A stretch of DNA of 21,678 nt from a virus, in the IMG/VR virus record IMGVR_UViG_3300037485_001705, positions 1 through 21,678 of that record; one strand, given 5' to 3'. Within the stretch, counting starts at the first letter, position 1. The number at the start of each line of letters is the position of its first letter. Both the position numbers and the translations under genes were made by a program. Of the stretch, positions 3,961-20,353 are shown one piece after another. The notes under the pieces were generated by a model. It was given only the letters and a program-made list of their open reading frames with translations. It made no database searches and had not been told where the DNA came from.

Positions 3961-5022
3961 TCATTCTGTTTTTAACATATCCCATACATCCACATAATCA
4001 AATAGATCTGAGATCATCATACCATTGTCATCATAAACTTGTTTACGATACTCCCATAGACCAGTTTCCATATGCCACTTATAATCATTGAGTAGTCCAA
4101 TGATACCTCTTACAGGTTTTCCATTGTACTCTCCTCCACCGATAGTTATACTGATGTCTTTATTACTAAGAACATAGATCATTGGTGCAAAGGTACAACT
4201 TTTTTCCACAAAAACAAATCTGAATGGAAGAATTGCATATCCTTCATAATGAACATCTCTCCACTTCTCAAGCCCAAGAGTATAGAATCCACCTTGATAA
4301 GCATAATCATACTTCAGAATACTTCCATCAAAGTAATGTCCTTTATTAGCAGTAGTTTTCAGATCAATAGGAATTATCACCTTTCTATCATGATCAACTT
4401 CAATGATATCCAACATTGCTTTACATTCAACACCTTCCTGCTCCCATAGAATTACTTTCTGATAGATCAGTGTCTTACCATCTTTCTCATAAGTATCCTG
4501 TCCTTTAATAGGATTTTCAATAAACCAATGGTTTACAAACTGATTATCAAGTAGTTGATACTTCATTGTAGTTATTTGAACATATTGTTCCTGTGTAAGT
4601 GTAGGTTTTTCTTTTGATATTCTCAATTCCTCAAGATAATATTGCCCTCCACCTAATTTGAACTCTTCTCTTACATTGTCTTCATTTGAAGTCTTTGTTT
4701 TAACATCTTCATATGCTACTCCATATATATCATTAAAAGTCTCATCAAGATCTAACAGTTCAATACATCTGTTCATATATTTACCAATGAATGTACGACC
4801 ATCACCAAATGGGTTATTACGTGTCATTATATGAAACTTCTCATCAAATTCTTCTTGCCCATTGAACATGAGAGTATCAAAAGCATCTCCAATTAGGAGA
4901 GCTTCTGATTCCTCATTACTACCATATTCCATCATACTCTTAGCGTACTTTGGATGATCCTTCAATGCTACAAGAAGACTTCTTGATACTGCATCATGTG
5001 CAAAATATTCTTTTCTTGTCAT
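3961..5022 (-). CDS. PD-(D/E)XK exonuclease (RecB/Cas4-like)
   Basis: A single-strand-handling or double-strand-resecting exonuclease, probably for phage recombination. Visible motifs (numbering from the start chosen here): a SRSLLVALKDHP and ALLIGDAFDTLMF N-terminal region typical of phage PD-(D/E)XK exonucleases, then CKAMLDIIEV (D205), PIDLKTT (D220-x-K222) and YQGGFY (Q243, the QxxxY-type element). The longest reading starts at 5079, but an overlapping 53-residue ORF ends at 5024 and the ATG at 5022 opens directly into the conserved N-terminus, so 5022 is preferred (353 residues). The enzyme follows the ubiquitin-like cassette in the same transcription direction. A functional pairing with the Sak4-like ATPase and SSB upstream is likely but inferred. 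Confidence 0.85.
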   Translation of the reverse strand: MTRKEYFAHDAVSRSLLVALKDHPKYAKSMMEYGSNEESEALLIGDAFDTLMFNGQEEFDEKFHIMTRNNPFGDGRTFIGKYMNRCIELLDLDETFNDIYGVAYEDVKTKTSNEDNVREEFKLGGGQYYLEELRISKEKPTLTQEQYVQITTMKYQLLDNQFVNHWFIENPIKGQDTYEKDGKTLIYQKVILWEQEGVECKAMLDIIEVDHDRKVIIPIDLKTTANKGHYFDGSILKYDYAYQGGFYTLGLEKWRDVHYEGYAILPFRFVFVEKSCTFAPMIYVLSNKDISITIGGGEYNGKPVRGIIGLLNDYKWHMETGLWEYRKQVYDDNGMMISDLFDYVDVWDMLKTE

Positions 5023-5023
5023 T

Positions 5024-5185
5024 TCAATAATATATTTTACGATAACATTCTTCTCCACTATCATTCTTATACTTCTCACATAGATCTACTATTGTATGAT
5101 GTTCTTTTAGTATCTTAGTTACCTCATATACTATCTTACCTCTATACCTTAGATCTGTTTTCCTTGCACTATACTTGTCTGTCAT
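5024..5185 (-). CDS. Small basic hypothetical protein, 53 aa
   Basis: An ATG at 5185 opens a 53-codon frame ending in TGA at 5024. The protein begins MTDKYSARKTDLRYRGKIV and continues with a helix-like KIVYEVTKILKEHHTIVDLC. It fills what would otherwise be a gap between two genes. Its start forms an ATGA overlap with the upstream 139-residue gene (5182-5185) and its stop lies one base before the preferred exonuclease start. That fit with the local packing style is the main support. I do not recognise the protein. Confidence 0.6.
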   Translation of the reverse strand: MTDKYSARKTDLRYRGKIVYEVTKILKEHHTIVDLCEKYKNDSGEECYRKIYY

Positions 5186-5601
5186 ATCAATTCTATATTA
5201 AGTTGTCTTTCAATAATAAGATGCTGAAGAAGTGTTTCCTTTGCATCTGCTTTCAACTGCTGTTCTTTAGCTTGCTTTTCTGGAAATGTTGTATAATAAG
5301 CATCTCTTGAGAATTTTACAACTGTTATCAGATCATCAGGAACTTCAAATCTTTCTATATAATCATCTTTAGCTTTCTGTATAATTTCTTTTACAATGTC
5401 TATTGAATCATTATCTATGAATGCTATTTGTAATACTCCACTTCGTATCTTAAGGAAATCTTCATTAATATTTCTCAATTGCTTATCACCCATCATTATC
5501 TGATAGATTGATGTTTTACCTTGTACAGGAGTTATCTGAACAATAGGTTTATTATCTATGATCCATTTAAGATCACTTGGTTCATAACGTTCTATTATCA
5601 T
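5182..5601 (-). CDS. Hypothetical protein directly after the E1-like gene, 139 aa
   Basis: Unrecognised 139-residue protein. An N-terminal strand-rich part (WIIDNKPIVQITPVQGKTSIYQIMMG) is followed by long charged helices, including KQAKEQQLKADAKETLLQHL near the C-terminus, which is coiled-coil-like. No catalytic motif or membrane segment is seen. It is coupled by ATGA overlaps both to the E1-like gene (5598-5601) and to the next small gene (5182-5185). Co-translation with the E1-like enzyme makes it a candidate accessory or target of the ubiquitin-like cassette, but this is inference from position alone. Confidence 0.65.
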   Translation of the reverse strand: MIIERYEPSDLKWIIDNKPIVQITPVQGKTSIYQIMMGDKQLRNINEDFLKIRSGVLQIAFIDNDSIDIVKEIIQKAKDDYIERFEVPDDLITVVKFSRDAYYTTFPEKQAKEQQLKADAKETLLQHLIIERQLNIELI

Positions 5602-6278
5602 AATATCTCAATTCTCTGTAATACCATATCTTCCCTGAATTTAAAGGGAACTTCTCTCATTGGGATACCTGTTGCAACATTTGCAAGGTGATTAGTGAAT
5701 ACTGACATCATACGTCCCGCTATAAGGAATCCTGTATGTGTAGTATTCTTCAATGAACATATCTGATCAGGTATTTCACTGTCATCAAATAATGTTTCTT
5801 CATATCGCTCTATCATATCAGGTGTCACTGAATATACTTCATAACTCTCAATGGTCATACGTCCATCTATGAATATCTCCTTGTTATCAAGTTTTTTCCA
5901 GTTATTGAACATCTCCTTACGAGCTTTCATATTATCAAAACATGAGAAGCATACAGGACTTACATAAGTACCATCTTCTATACGTGAAGTGAATACATGT
6001 ACATTACGATCAGATATCTCTGTGAATGATAGCATTAGATCCCTTACTACAATAGCCTTATGTTTACCAAGGTCACTTAGACTGAACATCTGTCCTGATA
6101 GATTGACAATATCAATGATATCATCATCATACAACAGGATAGTATGTTCTGCACTTCTTGCAAGTGGTATGGCAATATTACTGCCGATGGTTCCTACACC
6201 ACCGACAGTAATTTCCCTTGTTTGACCTGCCCATTCAATACTACTGAATCGACTTCTACTTTCTATTACGTTACTCAT
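5598..6278 (-). CDS. E1-like (ThiF family) ubiquitin-like activating enzyme
   Basis: A 226-residue adenylating enzyme of the ThiF/E1 superfamily, expected to adenylate the C-terminus of a ubiquitin-like protein. Landmarks: the nucleotide-binding ITVGGVGTIGSNIA (glycine loop 26-32), the acidic strand end LLYDDDIIDIVNLSGQ, then FSLSDLGKHKA, the usual D-x-G-x-x-K segment. C174 in QICSLKNTTHTG is the best candidate for a thioester cysteine. Odd point: the usual N-L-x-R-Q segment reads N-L-S-G-Q (59-63), so the conserved arginine is replaced by glycine. The gene is coupled by ATGA to the JAB gene (6275-6278) and the 139-residue gene. It is shorter than free-standing E1 proteins with extra domains but normal for a bare ThiF domain. 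Confidence 0.88.
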   Translation of the reverse strand: MSNVIESRSRFSSIEWAGQTREITVGGVGTIGSNIAIPLARSAEHTILLYDDDIIDIVNLSGQMFSLSDLGKHKAIVVRDLMLSFTEISDRNVHVFTSRIEDGTYVSPVCFSCFDNMKARKEMFNNWKKLDNKEIFIDGRMTIESYEVYSVTPDMIERYEETLFDDSEIPDQICSLKNTTHTGFLIAGRMMSVFTNHLANVATGIPMREVPFKFREDMVLQRIEIL

Positions 6279-7078
6279 GCTACAGGTTCTTCTTCTATTA
6301 CATACTCTGAATATTCAATAGCTGCCTCAAATATTTCATTCAGCTCATTGATGACATCTTTCCAAAGGGTCACATTATTATAAGTATTCAACAGTTTATG
6401 TGTTTCCTGTAATGCTTCAGTGAGTTTGTCATATCCGAACATATCAATGGTCATCAAATGAACATTCACTTCAATATCATCAAACAGTCCTTCTCTCTCC
6501 TTCTCAGGCATCTTGAACATATCAGCAAGTATTCTTCCTGTCTCCTTCTTATTTTCACTATCAAGTGTCAATATCTGGTTGAGATTCTTTCTAATAGTAG
6601 TAGGATTTATCTTATATGGTTCTTCCCACGTTTCAATTTTACCATTACCACTTTTGTGAAAATCATTCCACTCATCACCCCATAATGAGTTTTGAAGAGG
6701 TCTATTCATTTGATGTTGTTTACCATTAATGGTCTGTGTTGTCACTACTTTAGCGGCTTTAGCTTTCGCTTGCTCTTCAAGTTCATGAAGTCTGTTCATC
6801 AACTCCTTATCTTCAGGAGCATTTTCAATCTCAATATTCAGATCCATCATGAACATCATTTGTTTTGAGAATGTTTTGATACTACCTCTGTCAGTACCCT
6901 CTTCTTCAATTGGAATATTAGTTTCTGGAACTTCTATCAGTTTAACTATCTTAGCTACATACTTCTCTTCAAAATTAACAATAAGTGAAAGATAATAACT
7001 ACCATTCTTACTATAATTCTCAACATTGGTATGCAATTCATCAAGATCTTCTCCTGAGAACCATGCTCTCATATTATG
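6275..7078 (-). CDS. JAB/JAMM peptidase of the Ubl cassette, exon 2
   Basis: Second exon of a split 379-residue protein. It supplies the end of the JAMM motif: HNMRAWFSGEDL gives S120 and D123 when joined to H110-S-H112 of exon 1. The rest (about 250 residues) is a mixed charged extension of unknown role, with a helix rich in EEQAKAKAAK and a Trp/Glu-rich middle (WGDEWNDFHKSG), ending in an acidic YVIEEEPVA tail. Apparent in-frame Met codons from 7117 down to 7079 lie inside the intron and are not the true start. Its stop overlaps the E1-like start (ATGA). JAMM peptidases cleave isopeptide or C-terminal peptide bonds of ubiquitin-like proteins with a zinc ion. Confidence 0.85.
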   Translation of the reverse strand, partial: HNMRAWFSGEDLDELHTNVENYSKNGSYYLSLIVNFEEKYVAKIVKLIEVPETNIPIEEEGTDRGSIKTFSKQMMFMMDLNIEIENAPEDKELMNRLHELEEQAKAKAAKVVTTQTINGKQHQMNRPLQNSLWGDEWNDFHKSGNGKIETWEEPYKINPTTIRKNLNQILTLDSENKKETGRILADMFKMPEKEREGLFDDIEVNVHLMTIDMFGYDKLTEALQETHKLLNTYNNVTLWKDVINELNEIFEAAIEYSEYVIEEEPVA

Positions 7079-7556
7079 CAATTTGTTACCGTATAGACTC
7101 TTTATCCTATACATCAATATGTTTCCATATTGTTCGGACTATATCATCATCTACAGCATTATCTGTTTAGATGTTGGACGCTCGTGTTCCTATTATATTC
7201 TACTTTCGTAGTTTCAAGGATTAGTCTCTGAACCTGCTAAGAGTATTTAACTCTTAGATTGGCTGCTGATTAACTTATTAAAATAATGATGGTAGTGATT
7301 TGTCACGAGGCGGGCTTGATTTACCCTCCATGTTTTCATTCTTGATCGTAACCTCATCCCTTAAGGGCTTTTTTTACGTGAATAGTCACACTACATGAAA
7401 CAATTTATTGCAATTATAGAGGTTAGCTTGCAACTGCTTATTTCTACACCTCTGATAGCGTTTACCTATTCCGCCACATCATTAAATTAACTTAGTCTTC
7501 CAGACAATTCATCCAATATTTATAATCAACTATTTCTAATTGACCGCACCAATTTA
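7079..7556 (-). ncRNA. Group I intron in the JAB gene (478 nt, no ORF)
   Basis: Boundaries come from protein continuity and group I rules: exon 1 ends in T at 7557, the intron ends in G at 7079. P1 can be drawn: exon UCGCAU pairs with intron GUGCGG shortly after the splice site, with the required G-U pair at the junction. The core carries AATCAGCAGCC (P4 side), GGTTCAGAGACTA (P7 5' strand) and GATATAGTCC (P7 3' strand, GACUA/UAGUC). Near the 3' end are a GAAA-capped hairpin CAATATG/CATATTG (P9) and GTATAG/CTATAC (P9.1). No reading frame of useful length lies inside, so it lacks a homing endonuclease. The core resembles the polymerase intron, suggesting common ancestry. Confidence 0.88.
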
Positions 7557-7892
7557 ATGCGAATGTACCAGACCGGTACGTGATGTCATATAAGCATCTA
7601 CTCTATCTGCCATTGTAAGAAGTTCTTCTCCCTCAAAGTTGAATTCAGTATATCCCGATGTACCTTTATTCATAGGATAGATATCTACCACTTCAGCTAC
7701 ATAAGTAGAAGGATCACTTATACTTCCTTCAAGTTTGTTGTAGAACAATACTCCTGACCATTCAAGATTACCGAATGTCTTATGAATGATGTCTATCTTC
7801 TTCTTTACATTCTCACGAATGATCAATTTACCTACTCCCTCCATTTTGAGGACAGGATACTCCTTCTTTATTGCTTTTGTTATATTTGTCAT
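7557..7892 (-). CDS. JAB/JAMM peptidase of the Ubl cassette, exon 1
   Basis: First exon, 112 codons, starting at the ATG at 7892. It carries the JAB/MPN core: a hydrophobic strand with IIRENVKKKIDIIHK, then NLEWSGVLFYN with E44, the metal-activating glutamate, and a final GLVHSH with H110 and H112. Without splicing the frame stops three bases later, giving a peptidase missing the Ser and Asp of its motif. With exon 2 the motif is E44, H110-x-H112-x7-S120-x2-D123, a perfect JAMM. The family cleaves ubiquitin or ubiquitin-like tails. Here it would be the maturation and/or removal enzyme for the Ubl encoded at 9146-9718. It follows the E2-like gene after 11 nt. Confidence 0.88.
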
Positions 7893-7903
7893 AATTATTG
7901 TAT

Positions 7904-9082
7904 TTAAAATGGTAAAGATGATACAGGTACTTCTTCACCATTTATGATGATAAATTCTTCTTCATCTTCAAAAATAATAGGTTCTTCTATTGGTACTTTA
8001 ACTATTTCTACCTCAACTATTTGTCTCCAAGGATTATCAGTAAGTATAGTTGTGAACTTATCACTTAATTGTTTTAATGTTGAAGTGTTATAAGAATTGA
8101 ATACTGTATCAGTAAGTGCATCATGTTCTTCTGTGGTAGGAATGATATTTATCACTACATTCTTTCCTCTAAAATAAGTTGATTCACATGTTATGGAAGA
8201 ATTTTCACTATATTCATTCCACCAATTATCTTTTTTTACTGATGATGAATTAGGAAGTGTCTTCTTTATATTAAGGTTCTTTATTACTGCTTCAGCTATC
8301 AGATTCTCTGGTATCTTCAGATCATATGGAGTTAATAATATCTCAATATCCATATCATTCACTACTTCTATCATAATCTCACTTGGTATATCCTCTTTAA
8401 CAGATGTTGATATTTTAGTGTAGAGATCGGTTATTTTGAAATAAGGTCCTCCCTCTAAACTCTCCCATCTGATGAATGAATCAATATACATGAGTAGTCT
8501 ATAAACATCAAAGTTCTTCATTGATACTCTTCTTGTCATGAATATTCTTTTCAGGTCTGATTCTCCTATACACACTCTATTGAAACCGGTTACATATGAA
8601 TCTTTTGGTACATGAGAATGAATGTGACCATTAGTTTTCTCAAAATCAGTATAAATGTCTCTCAATATTTGAAAATTTCTCATGATAACAGTTCCTGATC
8701 TACCTATTGAAAGTGATGCTTTAGTATATATTCCCAATATAGGATGTTTCTGATCATTGGAATTGGTTATCTCAATATCTCCCCATCTTGTTACTATTCT
8801 CACATCATATCTTCCTGAATAATGATCAAATGATAGATCAAGATCATCCATTCCATTAGGTAGCATTTGTTTTGCACTTATACAGATATGTGTAAGGAAT
8901 GATACTATTCTCTGATAAGGTAGACTCTCTATACTGAATGCATCTTCTGTATTGATATCTGTAACTATTACATCTCCTATTATAGGAACATATTCATCCA
9001 TCAACTCATAACAGTTCCGTGTAACTCTTTCTAATAGATATATGTCATTATCTTCTATGGTTATCTTGAATATTATCGGCAT
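7904..9082 (-). CDS. E2-like (prokaryotic ubiquitin-conjugating fold) protein
   Basis: A 392-residue protein between the Ubl and JAB genes. Around residues 151-174 it has NGHIHSHVPKDSY followed by FNRVCIGESD, that is H155/H157 and C171. This is the pattern of bacterial E2-like proteins (Prok-E2 families, PRTRC protein B-like), in which a HxH segment precedes a C-(I/L)-G catalytic cysteine. The N-terminal half has strand-rich segments (RYDVRIVTRWGDIEI) consistent with a UBC-like fold. The C-terminal ~200 residues do not match anything I know. Function is inferred as Ubl transfer via C171. Position, directly after the Ubl terminator and before JAB and E1 genes, supports it. Sequence support alone is moderate. 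Confidence 0.7.
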   Translation of the reverse strand: MPIIFKITIEDNDIYLLERVTRNCYELMDEYVPIIGDVIVTDINTEDAFSIESLPYQRIVSFLTHICISAKQMLPNGMDDLDLSFDHYSGRYDVRIVTRWGDIEITNSNDQKHPILGIYTKASLSIGRSGTVIMRNFQILRDIYTDFEKTNGHIHSHVPKDSYVTGFNRVCIGESDLKRIFMTRRVSMKNFDVYRLLMYIDSFIRWESLEGGPYFKITDLYTKISTSVKEDIPSEIMIEVVNDMDIEILLTPYDLKIPENLIAEAVIKNLNIKKTLPNSSSVKKDNWWNEYSENSSITCESTYFRGKNVVINIIPTTEEHDALTDTVFNSYNTSTLKQLSDKFTTILTDNPWRQIVEVEIVKVPIEEPIIFEDEEEFIIINGEEVPVSSLPF

Positions 9083-9094
9083 TGTATATTAGTT

Positions 9095-9141
9095 ATAAAA
9101 AGTAAAAATGGGGCTATGATCACTATGACCACAGCCCCATT
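9095..9141 (-). terminator. Intrinsic terminator between Ubl and E2-like genes
   Basis: On the minus strand a 9-bp perfect stem (AATGGGGCT / AGCCCCATT, bases 9107-9115 and 9133-9141) with a 17-nt loop is followed by a U-rich tract (TTTTTACTTTTT). It begins a few bases after the Ubl stop codon at 9146. It would end most transcripts after the Ubl gene, leaving only read-through for E2-JAB-E1, and could give Ubl a higher dose than its enzymes. It is one of very few clear intrinsic terminators in the window. Confidence 0.85.
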
Positions 9142-9145
9142 GATA

Positions 9146-9718
9146 TTATGCTACTGTCTTGTATTCAGCATTCAATTCAGCAAGTGTAGTTCCACCGTAT
9201 GAATCTTCACCTTTGATCACGAGTCTTCCGAGAACATTCAATGCATTTACTGCATTCTGAAATGCTGCTCGTACATTCTGCATCTCTTCAGTCTCTTCTA
9301 CTGTTGAAACAGTTACTGATGAAGTTGCTGAAGACGATGTTCGTGAACTTCTATAATTGGACAGTCGATCCAACAATATTGCTGTTGATGTCTGTGATGC
9401 ATTACCGAAGTAAGCACGAGCACTACCACCATCGGCAGCTACAATTGCACGTACCCGTGAAAGTACTTCACTACGAGATGCTGCTCCACCCTTCTGCTTC
9501 TGTGGTACTACAAAGATCATCACTGGTCCTTCAGCAGGGATGAATGCTCCTGCATCCACAAGATCCACTTTACTTCCTTTTACCCTTACTACACTATTAT
9601 CCCAAGATACTTGACCTTGAGTAGCTGCTTTCAATTCTCCAAATGTCTGTCCTTCAAACATTACCTTCAATGGTGCACTATTACCATCTGACTTGATATA
9701 TACTTCTCTTGCTTGCAT
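9146..9718 (-). CDS. Ubiquitin-like protein with C-terminal extension (PRTRC-C-like)
   Basis: A 190-residue protein. Residues ~1-74 read as a beta-grasp fold: strands at REVYIKS and LKVMFEG, a helix at FGELKAA, then VVRVKGSKVDLVDAG and AEGPVMIFVVP, like ThiS/MoaD/ubiquitin and PRTRC protein C. The domain ends in PQKQKGG, with Gly-Gly at 77-78, and then runs on into 112 residues: a predicted helix, a Ser/Thr-rich linker (RSSRTSSSATSSVTVSTVEE) and a last alpha-helical part. A Gly-Gly inside a precursor is the classic processing point for Ubl maturation, and a JAB peptidase is encoded two genes later. A strong terminator follows. The Ubl assignment is by fold pattern and context; processing at Gly-Gly is inference. 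Confidence 0.75.
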   Translation of the reverse strand: MQAREVYIKSDGNSAPLKVMFEGQTFGELKAATQGQVSWDNSVVRVKGSKVDLVDAGAFIPAEGPVMIFVVPQKQKGGAASRSEVLSRVRAIVAADGGSARAYFGNASQTSTAILLDRLSNYRSSRTSSSATSSVTVSTVEETEEMQNVRAAFQNAVNALNVLGRLVIKGEDSYGGTTLAELNAEYKTVA

Positions 9719-10707: not shown

Positions 10708-11649
10708 TCATCTTATTAATTCCTTCATCATTATTCTGGCACTCTCTTTTCCATACTTCTTAGCATGATCTGTGATGTCCTTGGTGTCACAGGTATTCTT
10801 TATAGGGGTTATTCCATATTCAGATACATGTCTCTCCATGAATCTATCTCCTGCATTATCAGGATCTCCCCAAATGAACACCTTGTCAAACCTATTGAGA
10901 ATACTCTCCATCTCTTTTTTAGGAACATCAACACTCTCTGCCTGTGGTGCGAATGATGGAATATCGAACTCATGCAACAACAGCACATCCTTATAGGACT
11001 TCTGTATGATGCATACTTCACCTTTATCAGGTAATAGTCGATATCCCTGCAATGCAGTTCCTCCTGCAATGAACCGTAGTCTTTCTTCATGTGGTCTATA
11101 TATCTTCCACTCTGTAAACAGATCATATGCGTATGATGGGGTCCGACACCCATATACATTATCACCTATCCAGAATTTAGATATCGGAGTAACTCTTCCC
11201 CAATTAAGGGTTGATCTACTTATTCCCCATGATTCCCAAAACTCGATATCATTCTCTCTTACCACCCTCTTTTTTACAAGTATCTTTGGAAATACATTGT
11301 GCTTCTTCACTTGTTTCTTTACACCATAGGAAAAATAGGGAAGACCTTCACAATGAAGATCCTCCCATATTCTTTCCAACAGTTCTCCATATGTCATATA
11401 TGGATATATCTGTGAAACAAGATCAATTATTCCTCCTTTCTGACCAGTGCCGTAATCAACATATCTCAGATATCCACCGTTTGAATAATATAGTCTGAAC
11501 GAAGGATCACTATCTCCACTTCTTAAAGGGGAACTTATCATCTGCTTTACCTTCACATCATTGCCTATATATCTTCTATAGATATCCAATTCACTTACCT
11601 TATTGAGTATCATCTCAAGGGAAAGCTGTTTTCTTACTTTTATGGTCAT
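10708..11649 (-). CDS. DnaG-type primase with TOPRIM domain
   Basis: A 313-residue primase-like protein. The N-terminal part (SPLRSGDSDPSFRLYYSNGG, then YVDYGTGQKGGIIDLV) matches the zinc-ribbon-side fold of bacterial primases but has lost the usual cysteines. The TOPRIM part reads EVCIIQKSYKDVLLL near 211-225 and VFIWGDPDNAGDRF near 257-270, keeping the DxD...G pair. The usual TOPRIM glutamate of the first motif is replaced here (QKS-Y-K-D), a variant I recall from phage primases with a (T/Q)KS(Y/L)KD motif. It makes RNA primers in the replication complex with the DnaB-like helicase encoded upstream. Support is motif-based. Confidence 0.82.
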   Translation of the reverse strand: MTIKVRKQLSLEMILNKVSELDIYRRYIGNDVKVKQMISSPLRSGDSDPSFRLYYSNGGYLRYVDYGTGQKGGIIDLVSQIYPYMTYGELLERIWEDLHCEGLPYFSYGVKKQVKKHNVFPKILVKKRVVRENDIEFWESWGISRSTLNWGRVTPISKFWIGDNVYGCRTPSYAYDLFTEWKIYRPHEERLRFIAGGTALQGYRLLPDKGEVCIIQKSYKDVLLLHEFDIPSFAPQAESVDVPKKEMESILNRFDKVFIWGDPDNAGDRFMERHVSEYGITPIKNTCDTKDITDHAKKYGKESARIMMKELIR

Positions 11650-17408: not shown

Positions 17409-18230
17409 TCAAGAAATTTCTCTCTCGAACGGCAATTTAATATAATTTTTTGTGTAATATATATCGTAATCTTCGTATAAACAATGTTCTTGATCTCTTA
17501 TTTTCTTGTAATAAAAACTTTTATTTTTACGTAAAAACTTACACAGAGCAGTTTTACTCAAAAAATAATAAATCTGATCATTATGTTTTACAATCAAATA
17601 TTTATCCTTATGATCTTTAAAATAATTTTTATATATATAATTTCTTATATCAAAAGTCTTTTTAAACTTAGTTATAGAAATAATAAATTGGTTTTTTGTA
17701 ATTCCATGTTCTGTATCAGGAAACCCTTTCATGTTTAAAAATTCCAAACATTCTTTTCTATTCCTACAACCCTTTATTAATTTGAAATTATATATATCGT
17801 AAACAAAATGTTTCTTCCAAGCATGTGTTTGTCTATAACAATCAATGATCCCTTCTTTGTATTTTAATTTTAATGTCTCACTAATTCGTTCTCTTACCTC
17901 TTGAGTTGGAGAATACCCTGTCATAGCAATAACATTTAAAACTTTATTATATTCAGGCTTCAATTTTGTTATATAGTATTGTTCTCTCGCAAATTGTTTC
18001 TCTAAATCACAAAATTCAATTACTTCATGTTCAAAACTATCTACTCCATATTTATTATATGAATATTGTAGATGTTTATTATGATGTCTGTTGTGTTTTA
18101 ATTCAAAGAAATGAGAATGCAATCTATCATATATATTCTTGGAAGATCCTATATAGATCTTATTATTTGTTTTATTGATTATTTTATATACCCCACAATT
18201 TTCATTTAGTAATCTATGATTTATTTTCAT
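17409..18230 (-). CDS. GIY-YIG homing endonuclease in the helicase intron
   Basis: From the ATG at 18230 (273 residues) the protein opens with NCGVYKIINKTNNKIYIGSS, the GIY (GVY) and YIG motifs, followed by KNIYDRLHSHFFEL with the catalytic-helix arginine, and NKYGVDSFEHEVIEF. A later TQEVRERISETLKLKYKEG is a NUMOD3-like DNA-binding repeat. A longer frame from a TTG at 18257 would use the promoter's own -7 element as codons, so 18230 is preferred. It would cut an intronless copy of the helicase gene near the insertion site and spread the intron. It has its own Bacteroidota promoter. Confidence 0.85.
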   Translation of the reverse strand: MKINHRLLNENCGVYKIINKTNNKIYIGSSKNIYDRLHSHFFELKHNRHHNKHLQYSYNKYGVDSFEHEVIEFCDLEKQFAREQYYITKLKPEYNKVLNVIAMTGYSPTQEVRERISETLKLKYKEGIIDCYRQTHAWKKHFVYDIYNFKLIKGCRNRKECLEFLNMKGFPDTEHGITKNQFIISITKFKKTFDIRNYIYKNYFKDHKDKYLIVKHNDQIYYFLSKTALCKFLRKNKSFYYKKIRDQEHCLYEDYDIYYTKNYIKLPFEREIS

Positions 18231-18246
18231 TTTATTTGTATTTCTA

Positions 18247-18278
18247 CAAATATACAAAATTTTTCACAGATTTCCAAA
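18247..18278 (-). promoter_or_regulatory. Bacteroidota-type promoter for the helicase-intron endonuclease
   Basis: On the minus strand TTTG (18275-18278) is followed by exactly 20 bases and TATATTTG (18247-18254), the -33/-7 form of primary sigma factor promoters of Bacteroidota. The ATG lies 16 bases downstream of the -7 element, giving a short leader. It lies inside the intron, so the endonuclease can be expressed without the helicase transcript. Confidence 0.75.
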
Positions 18279-19729: not shown

Positions 19730-20353
19730 TTAAAGTCGTATTCTTTCTACAATCATTTCTTTATAAGTAACAACATCTTGTTTTTTTCTATGAAAAGATG
19801 AGTAAACTGCTGTCCAACCTTTTTCTTTCAACTCTTGGTGTGAATATCTTATACCATTTATATTATAAATATAACGAGTAAGAGTTTTAGAAAAAAGTTT
19901 AGATTGCGTTTGTCGATCTCTGTTTTTCCAAGATTTTTTTAACTTATCACTATGTGTATCACGTTTTCCTTCAGACCATTCTTTTTTTAAACGATCTGAA
20001 ATCTTTTTTCGTGTTTTTTCATGACAAATCATACCTGTTTTAGAATCGAGACGAAGATTATACCCTTTATTTGTGCTATCATAGAATTTTATCCAATATA
20101 ACTCACGTTGGGCAATTAGTGTCTCATTAAAATCAAGTTGTTCAAGAATATCATAATCAAAAGAATCTCTACCATATTTATTCCATGAATTTTGCAAATA
20201 AGCATTTTCTGCTTTTTTATTATTTTTCATATGATAAATGTGTTGATGAATTCTTTTATAGATATTTTTTGATTTACCTATATAGTATTTACCGTTTATT
20301 TTATTGATAATTCGATAAATTCCACAAAATTGATGTTTTGGATTTGCTTTCAT
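19730..20353 (-). CDS. GIY-YIG homing endonuclease in the polymerase intron
   Basis: A 207-residue endonuclease. It opens FCGIYRIINKINGKYYIGKS, the GIY and YIG motifs, then NIYKRIHQHIYHM with the catalytic arginine. A KTRKKISDRLKKEWSEGKRD and DKLKKSWKNRDRQTQS stretch follows, NUMOD3-like DNA-binding repeats. It cuts intronless polymerase genes to spread the intron. The start ATG follows its own -7 promoter element by only three bases, so its mRNA may be leaderless. Confidence 0.87.
   Translation of the reverse strand: MKANPKHQFCGIYRIINKINGKYYIGKSKNIYKRIHQHIYHMKNNKKAENAYLQNSWNKYGRDSFDYDILEQLDFNETLIAQRELYWIKFYDSTNKGYNLRLDSKTGMICHEKTRKKISDRLKKEWSEGKRDTHSDKLKKSWKNRDRQTQSKLFSKTLTRYIYNINGIRYSHQELKEKGWTAVYSSFHRKKQDVVTYKEMIVERIRL

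What the first reader, a model, noticed from the sequence alone, without database searches (positions are those of the whole stretch)
5598..9718. Phage-encoded ubiquitin-like conjugation cassette (Ubl, E2-like, JAB, E1-like) inside a replication module
Four consecutive genes give the parts of a ubiquitin-like pathway: a beta-grasp Ubl with Gly-Gly, a protein with a HxH...C-I-G E2 pattern, a JAMM peptidase and a ThiF/E1 enzyme. Seen in sequence: the JAMM motif, the ThiF glycine loop and the Gly-Gly. Established: plasmid PRTRC and bacterial Ubl systems (e.g. Bil) share this gene set, and PRTRC has a similar order. Inference: this phage cassette conjugates Ubl to a target, perhaps DNA-replication proteins it is co-encoded with, or a host defence or virion component.
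Basis: partly seen in the sequence, partly recalled or inferred. Interest (0 to 1): 0.92.

Follow-up and report, generated by a model that had tools for sequence, protein, structure and literature searches.

The report
Phage ubiquitin-like cassette with split peptidase
A crAss-like phage carries, next to its DNA primase, a four-gene set that looks like a small ubiquitin-tagging pathway (tag, activating enzyme, carrier enzyme, tag-cutting peptidase), and the peptidase gene is interrupted by a self-splicing intron exactly inside its active-site motif; the gene set is conserved in over a hundred related phage sequences, but tagging has not been shown by experiment.

Summary
The cassette is real. 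On the minus strand lie Ubl (9718-9146), E2-like (9082-7904), JAB and E1 (6278-5598) genes. The same order Ubl-E2-JAB-E1 is found in 159 of 177 related loci (PhiCrAss001, DAC15, Flavobacterium Fpv phages, environmental contigs), with a primase upstream in 143. Splicing gives a 379-aa protein with an exact HxHx7SxxD. Nine JAB genes carry inserts at four sites, all in the JAMM codons. The Ubl has a ubiquitin-like fold (VIA Z 8-10); over 101 homologues one column is invariant, Gly78 (window KGG, usually KSG). No homologue ends at that Gly; eight end one residue after it, so the Ubl looks like a pro-protein matured by JAB. E1 and JAB are secure by sequence; E2 rests on an invariant His/Cys motif, topology and weak structural matches. 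Gene order equals PRTRC plasmid operons, but PRTRC profiles are failed. Best reading: a phage-core Ubl conjugation pathway; target unknown.

The parts
9146..9718 (-). Ubl gene, 190 aa: ubiquitin-like domain (residues 1-78, ...KQKGG) plus a helical C-terminal extension (79-190)
   Evidence: AlphaFold2 model pLDDT 86.9; Foldseek prob 1.00 to DIX, DWNN and ubiquitin; VIA Z 8.0-9.9, rmsd about 2-2.5, about 70 residues; G78 invariant in 101 homologues
9485..9487 (-). codon of invariant Gly78, predicted end of the mature Ubl
   Evidence: only invariant column of 101 Ubl sequences
7904..9082 (-). E2-like gene, 392 aa; putative active site H155-S-H157...C171-I-G173
   Evidence: 98-sequence alignment with H157, C171, G173, E207, S208, G211, P213 invariant; model pLDDT 77.8 with helix-4 strands-Cys loop-helices; UBC E2s at VIA Z up to 5.0
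7557..7892 (-). JAB exon 1 (112 codons), ends in ...GLVHSH
   Evidence: Prok-JAB 0.0025 for the spliced protein, all 10 family members match, best 1.1e-6
7079..7556 (-). group I intron, 478 nt, without an endonuclease ORF; splice boundaries inferred
   Evidence: Rfam RF00028 79.5 bits, E 5e-19; exon 1 ends in T, intron ends in G, frame and JAMM spacing restored; blastn matches to introns of other phages end at its last base
6275..7078 (-). JAB exon 2 (starts HNMRAWFSGED), 267 codons plus stop; stop codon overlaps the E1 start (ATGA)
   Evidence: spliced protein 355.7 bits against the JAB profile, of whose training set it is a member
5598..6278 (-). E1/ThiF-like gene, 226 aa; glycine loop at 27-33, NLSGQ at 59-63, K74, D115, candidate catalytic C174
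   Evidence: Pfam ThiF 7.4e-11; profile match to UBA5, MccB and ThiF structures, E from 5e-13; family alignment
10708..11649 (-). neighbouring DNA primase-like gene, the conserved upstream neighbour
   Evidence: primase homologue upstream of Ubl in 143 of 159 four-gene loci
3961..5079 (-). neighbouring PDDEXK (exonuclease VIII-like) gene
   Evidence: Pfam DUF3799 3e-9, PHROG exonuclease VIII 1.8e-25; homologue downstream of E1 in 85 of 159 loci

Best explanation
The cassette is a phage-encoded ubiquitin-like conjugation pathway that belongs to the core replication module of crAss-like phages. The Ubl is made as a precursor. The JAB peptidase, after the intron has spliced out of its mRNA, cuts behind Gly78 and frees the mature C-terminus. 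The ThiF-like E1 adenylates that Gly and passes it, probably through a Cys, to Cys171 of the E2-like protein, which attaches it to a lysine of a target. JAB also reverses the attachment. Shown here: the genes, their conservation, the JAMM motif after joining the exons, the invariant Gly with trailing residues, the predicted ubiquitin-like fold and the E1 domain. Inferred: splicing, precursor cleavage, adenylation, thioester relay, conjugation. Guess from location only: the target is a replication or recombination protein.
For: Order Ubl-E2-JAB-E1 in 159 of 177 loci, the rest lacking one or more detected genes, often at contig ends; E1 domain; JAMM HxHx7SxxD in 102 of 104 unsplit JAB genes and restored in all nine split ones; invariant Gly in 101/101 Ubls, 0/101 ending at it, 8 ending one residue after it and 6 ending 2-6 after it, as ubiquitin-family precursors do; ubiquitin-like fold; invariant His and Cys in the E2-like protein; same gene order as plasmid PRTRC operons Ubl(C)-F-E2(B)-JAB(A)-E1; primase upstream in 143/159. 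The known bacterial operon class 6d of Iyer et al. 2006 (PMC1779556) has the same four components.
Against: No biochemical evidence. The E2 fold is not established: Foldseek found no PDB match and UBC matches are below Z 8. The E1 lacks the Arg of the NxxRQ motif; it is Gly (NxxGQ in 84 of 96, and none of the three regex NxxRQ hits lies at that site). Most Ubls have SG, not GG. 85 of 101 Ubls carry over 30 residues after the Gly, so the extension may have its own function and may not be removed.
Confidence: 0.72

Rival explanations
1. Sulfur-carrier pathway: the Ubl is a ThiS/MoaD-type sulfur carrier, E1 thiocarboxylates its Gly, JAB exposes the Gly, and sulfur goes to a nucleotide or nucleic acid modification, without protein conjugation.
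For: E1 also scores with ThiF/MoeB profiles; JAB-ThiS pairs exist in sulfur operons (PMC1779556); the neighbourhood is nucleic-acid metabolism.
Against: No rhodanese, SirA-like or sulfurtransferase gene is annotated as a constant neighbour in the relatives; the fourth constant gene has an invariant His/Cys motif and the order is that of E2-containing operons.
Confidence: 0.12
2. E2-independent conjugation (Urm1/SAMP-like) in which the 392-aa protein is an adaptor or substrate receptor and not an E2.
For: No sequence or strong fold match to E2; non-E2 folds outrank E2s in the structural list.
Against: Invariant Cys in a CxG motif after an invariant His, in the place where UBC enzymes carry their Cys; Rad6, UBC-7, Pex4 and Cdc34 align over 129-134 of about 150 or more residues.
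Confidence: 0.2
3. Counter-defence: the cassette tags or untags a host defence component, or competes with host Ubl defence such as Bil or CBASS.
For: Ubl pathways act in phage-bacterium conflict (CBASS; PMC10097602, found); BilD and CBASS E1-E2 profiles match the E1 weakly.
Against: The cassette is nearly universal and fixed in position in its phage group, near the primase, unlike typical accessory counter-defence genes; no Bil or CBASS partner genes seen.
Confidence: 0.15
4. In this phage the JAB gene is broken, because the insert is not removed.
For: The window intron carries no endonuclease gene, and unspliced mRNA would make a 112-aa fragment without S and D of the motif.
Against: Complete group I core above the Rfam gathering score, restored frame and motif, no stop in exon 2, T before the intron and G at its end.
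Confidence: 0.07

Closest known systems
PRTRC plasmid operon (class 6d-like operons of Iyer et al. 2006, PMC1779556)
   Same: Ubl, E2, JAB and ThiF/E1 genes in the same order in Burkholderia, Polaromonas and Sphingomonas plasmids; E1 aligns over 200 columns (hhalign 98.3%, 1.8e-14), JAB aligns at the JAMM motif (70%, 4e-5); Ubl (protein C) with a conserved C-terminal Gly
   Different: No ParB, PRTRC_E or F in the cassette; E2 and Ubl do not align; E1 29.7 bits against a cut-off of 144.75; NxxGQ in place of NxxRQ; Ubl mostly extended beyond the Gly; phage core module near the primase
Bil and related bacterial Ubl conjugation operons (antiphage)
   Same: Ubl, E1, E2 and JAMM peptidase functions (from general knowledge)
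   Different: E1 similarity is weak (BilD 21 bits for the PhiCrAss001 E1); carried by the phage and linked to replication genes
[quoted passage not shown]
   Same: Phage Ubl followed by more sequence after a conserved Gly, with a JAB that may cut there
   Different: No E1 or E2; tail module instead of replication module
ThiF and metalloprotease genes annotated in PhiCrAss001 (crAss001_76, _77)
   Same: They are members of this cassette
   Different: Annotated singly as thiamine biosynthesis and metalloprotease; neighbours crAss001_78 and _79 left hypothetical
Group I introns in crAss-like phages (Yutin et al. 2021, PMC7886860)
   Same: Group I introns in core genes are reported for delta and zeta groups
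   Different: That paper does not mention JAB, ThiF or ubiquitin; here the inserts sit inside the JAMM codons at four sites

Membership tests
Prokaryotic Ubl conjugation system (Ubl+E1+E2+JAB operon) | beta-grasp Ubl with C-terminal Gly | tested here: met
   fold and invariant Gly, but followed by 1 to many residues
Prokaryotic Ubl conjugation system (Ubl+E1+E2+JAB operon) | E1/ThiF adenylating domain | tested here: met
   Pfam ThiF over cut-off; PDB profile match; Arg of NxxRQ replaced by Gly
Prokaryotic Ubl conjugation system (Ubl+E1+E2+JAB operon) | E2/UBC fold with active Cys | tested here: inconclusive
   invariant Cys; VIA Z up to 5.0 to UBC enzymes
Prokaryotic Ubl conjugation system (Ubl+E1+E2+JAB operon) | JAMM peptidase with HxHx7SxxD | tested here: met
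   after joining exons; 102/104 unsplit relatives
Prokaryotic Ubl conjugation system (Ubl+E1+E2+JAB operon) | covalent Ubl adducts | not testable with these tools
   needs biochemistry
PRTRC system | matches PRTRC profiles (ThiF, A, B) at curated cut-offs | tested here: not met
   PRTRC_ThiF 29.7 vs 144.75 bits; PRTRC_A 12.6 vs 101.8 bits for the PhiCrAss001 JAB; no PRTRC_B match
PRTRC system | gene order Ubl-(F)-E2-JAB-E1 | tested here: met
PRTRC system | ParB and protein E in the operon | tested here: not met
   none seen between or beside the four genes in the window or as annotated in relatives
Bil system | Bil profiles for the components | tested here: not met
   only a weak BilD hit for one E1 (2.5e-5, 21 bits), none for Ubl or E2
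Group I intron | Rfam RF00028 core above gathering score | tested here: met
   79.5 bits against 50
Group I intron | U before the 5' splice site, G at the 3' end of the intron | tested here: met
Group I intron | self-splicing | not testable with these tools
   needs RNA work

The most novel reading that the evidence does not exclude
crAss-like phages run an essential Ubl conjugation cycle on their own replication proteins, with a precursor Ubl, and in intron-bearing members the peptidase that matures the Ubl can be made only after RNA splicing of its active-site codons, so that tagging is gated by splicing.
Probability: 0.1. Interest if true: 0.95.

Novelty: new variant of a known kind. Interest (0 to 1): 0.78.

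Why it matters
Complete Ubl-E1-E2-peptidase sets are known from bacteria, where they serve in antiphage defence or sit on plasmids. A complete set fixed in the replication module of a large phage group, including cultured PhiCrAss001, DAC15 and Flavobacterium phages, would mean that phages themselves use ubiquitin-like tagging, and it offers tractable laboratory systems in which to find the target. The Ubl precursor pattern gives a direct, testable substrate for the JAB. Nine inserts at four sites inside the JAMM codons, with a natural plus/minus pair (Fpv1 and FpV4), show a recurrent homing hot spot in an enzyme active site.

Tried and rejected
A single-protein scan with the window E1 found no viral relatives; alignment queries were needed. 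tblastn of the window Ubl in phages gave nothing; the family was found through synteny. Pfam, NCBIfam and PDB profile searches gave no meaningful match for E2 or Ubl. Foldseek against PDB failed for the E2 model; its viral library returned mostly unnamed or uncharacterised phage proteins at the top, some of them crAss-like. hhalign did not join phage E2 or Ubl to PRTRC B or C, though only 6-7 PRTRC sequences were used. Rfam misses the inserts of L007, L024, L132, L152 and L173; they are called group I from P7-strand motifs and from blastn similarity to one another and to the Rfam-confirmed introns, which is weaker evidence. Literature searches found no paper in the held library joining crAss-like phages with ThiF or ubiquitin-like conjugation; subscription papers are not covered. 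I considered the 280-aa ORF as a separate gene and rejected it, because it is JAB exon 2.
Full report
What is in the window. The window is a 21,678-base virus record. Its DnaB-like helicase and its E1 are most like those of Crassvirales (Steigviridae) phages, and the E1 also like those of Flavobacterium phages. On the minus strand, in gene order: primase-like, RusA-like and small genes, then Ubl (9718-9146), E2-like (9082-7904), JAB (7892-6275, split), E1 (6278-5598, start overlapping the JAB stop as ATGA), a 139-aa gene and a PDDEXK exonuclease.

The JAB gene is split by a group I intron. ORF 7892-7554 stops directly after GLVHSH, half of the JAMM motif. Rfam finds a group I intron at 7568-7115 (79.5 bits, gathering score 50). 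Requiring intact JAMM spacing and a terminal G places the intron at 7556-7079 (478 nt) and joins the exons in frame to a 379-aa protein with HSH-HNMRAWF-S-GE-D. Blastn matches of this intron to Staphylococcus and Peptoclostridium phage DNA end at its last base, which agrees with the inferred 3' end. The spliced protein matches Prok-JAB (0.0025), as do all ten family members (best 1.1e-6); the family profile reaches CSN5 (5.5e-4) among solved structures.

Recurrent insertion in the JAMM codons. Among the related loci, eight further JAB genes (counting the Fpv1-type phages once) are split, always at profile positions 103-111, where HSH is 105-107. By inspection there are four sites: before IHSH (Fpv1), after the first His (L055), after the second His (window, L024, L132, L152, L173), and after HSHxxMA (L088, L167). 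In all nine the 5' exon ends in T, the insert ends in G, frame and motif are restored, and a GATATAGTC strand is present. The boundaries were chosen to restore the motif, so the T and G are supporting, not independent, evidence. Rfam confirms the window, L055, L088 and L167 as group I introns; the others rest on motif and blastn similarity. All inserts except those of the window and L055 hold endonuclease-like ORFs, often antisense; three were checked with Pfam and are LAGLIDADG. FpV4 lacks the Fpv1 insert, and their E1 tblastn scores are identical. E1 genes are split too, at the glycine loop and at the IDGR motif; the joint set for L114 was mis-offset in my script and did not give an open frame. 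The detection needs both halves to match a profile, so inserts near gene ends could be missed.

Conservation. Scans of viral contigs with E1 and E2 profiles plus annotated phages gave 177 loci (some contigs appear twice; 96 E1 clusters at 85% identity among the contig loci). 159 have Ubl-E2-JAB-E1 in that order. A primase homologue lies upstream of Ubl in 143 of 159, an exonuclease downstream of E1 in 85, and a uracil-DNA glycosylase downstream in 72 or upstream in 21. In 84,980 bacterial and archaeal species genomes the E1 pattern scan found only two short MAG contigs.

The Ubl. The model (pLDDT 86.9) has a ubiquitin-like domain in residues 1-78; VIA gives Z 8.0-9.9 to DIX domains, ISG15, ubiquitin and SUMO over about 70 residues. 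These matches stand as one consistent fold class. Over 101 homologues the only invariant column is Gly78. None ends there; eight end one residue later, six 2-6 later, two 7-30 later and 85 more than 30 later. That pattern is what a precursor cut by a peptidase would show; it is an inference.

The E1. It carries the glycine loop, aspartates, K74 and D115 of the E1 family and one invariant Cys, C174, which hhalign places at the conserved Cys of PRTRC ThiF. The Arg of NxxRQ is Gly in this family. What this does to catalysis is unknown.

The E2-like protein. H157, C171, G173, E207, S208, G211 and P213 are invariant in 98 homologues. The model has helix 57-73, strands 81-88, 91-107, 112-126 and 131-141, then the Cys loop and helices, which is the order of a UBC domain (from general knowledge). 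UBC enzymes appear in the structural list at Z 4.3-5.0 with 129-134 aligned residues, below CapZ at 6.6. I call it E2-like: probable, not proven.

Compared with known systems. Gene order equals that of PRTRC operons, C(Ubl)-F-B(E2)-A(JAB)-ThiF. E1 is related to PRTRC ThiF over its length and JAB at its motif, but E2 and Ubl do not align and PRTRC cut-offs are not met. It works like PRTRC-type operons are predicted to work, but is not shown to be a member. Class 6d of Iyer et al. 2006 describes this four-gene theme in bacteria; the passages read there describe phage Ubls only in tail modules (PMC1779556). The held open literature shows no report for crAss-like phages.

Verdict. A phage Ubl pathway is the best reading (0.72). 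The target is unknown; the primase linkage favours replication or recombination proteins, which is a guess from location. The new points are the fixed, near-universal cassette, the precursor-like Ubl, and the intron hot spot in the peptidase active site.

Noticed in passing
L064:3322-4257 (and L011:1864-2790, phage cr126_1): The Ubl is followed in the same protein by a ribosomal protein L7/L12 C-terminal domain (Pfam 3.1e-10 and 5.1e-12), reminiscent of eukaryotic ubiquitin-ribosomal protein fusions.
   Followed up: partly
L152:3625-4631: Two Ubl genes in tandem before E2.
   Followed up: no
L013:1381-2653 (phage cr106_1): The Ubl gene is split around an annotated HNH endonuclease gene, just past the Gly region.
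   Followed up: no
L114, L119, L135, L143, L173: E1 genes split by insertions at the glycine loop (GGIG/S), at IDG/R and, in L173, at profile position 80; L119 holds an Rfam group I intron.
   Followed up: partly
window 17409-18257 and 19730-20353 (-): Two GIY-YIG endonuclease genes (Pfam 1.9e-12, 3.5e-11), one directly upstream of a helicase ORF (17141-16059) that matches only Helicase_C; possibly more mobile elements in core genes.
   Followed up: no
L167:260-493: A second group I intron (62.6 bits) upstream of the cassette in the same contig.
   Followed up: no
window 6092-6106 (-), E1 residues 59-63: NxxGQ replaces the E1 motif NxxRQ throughout the phage family; catalytic meaning unknown.
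   Followed up: partly
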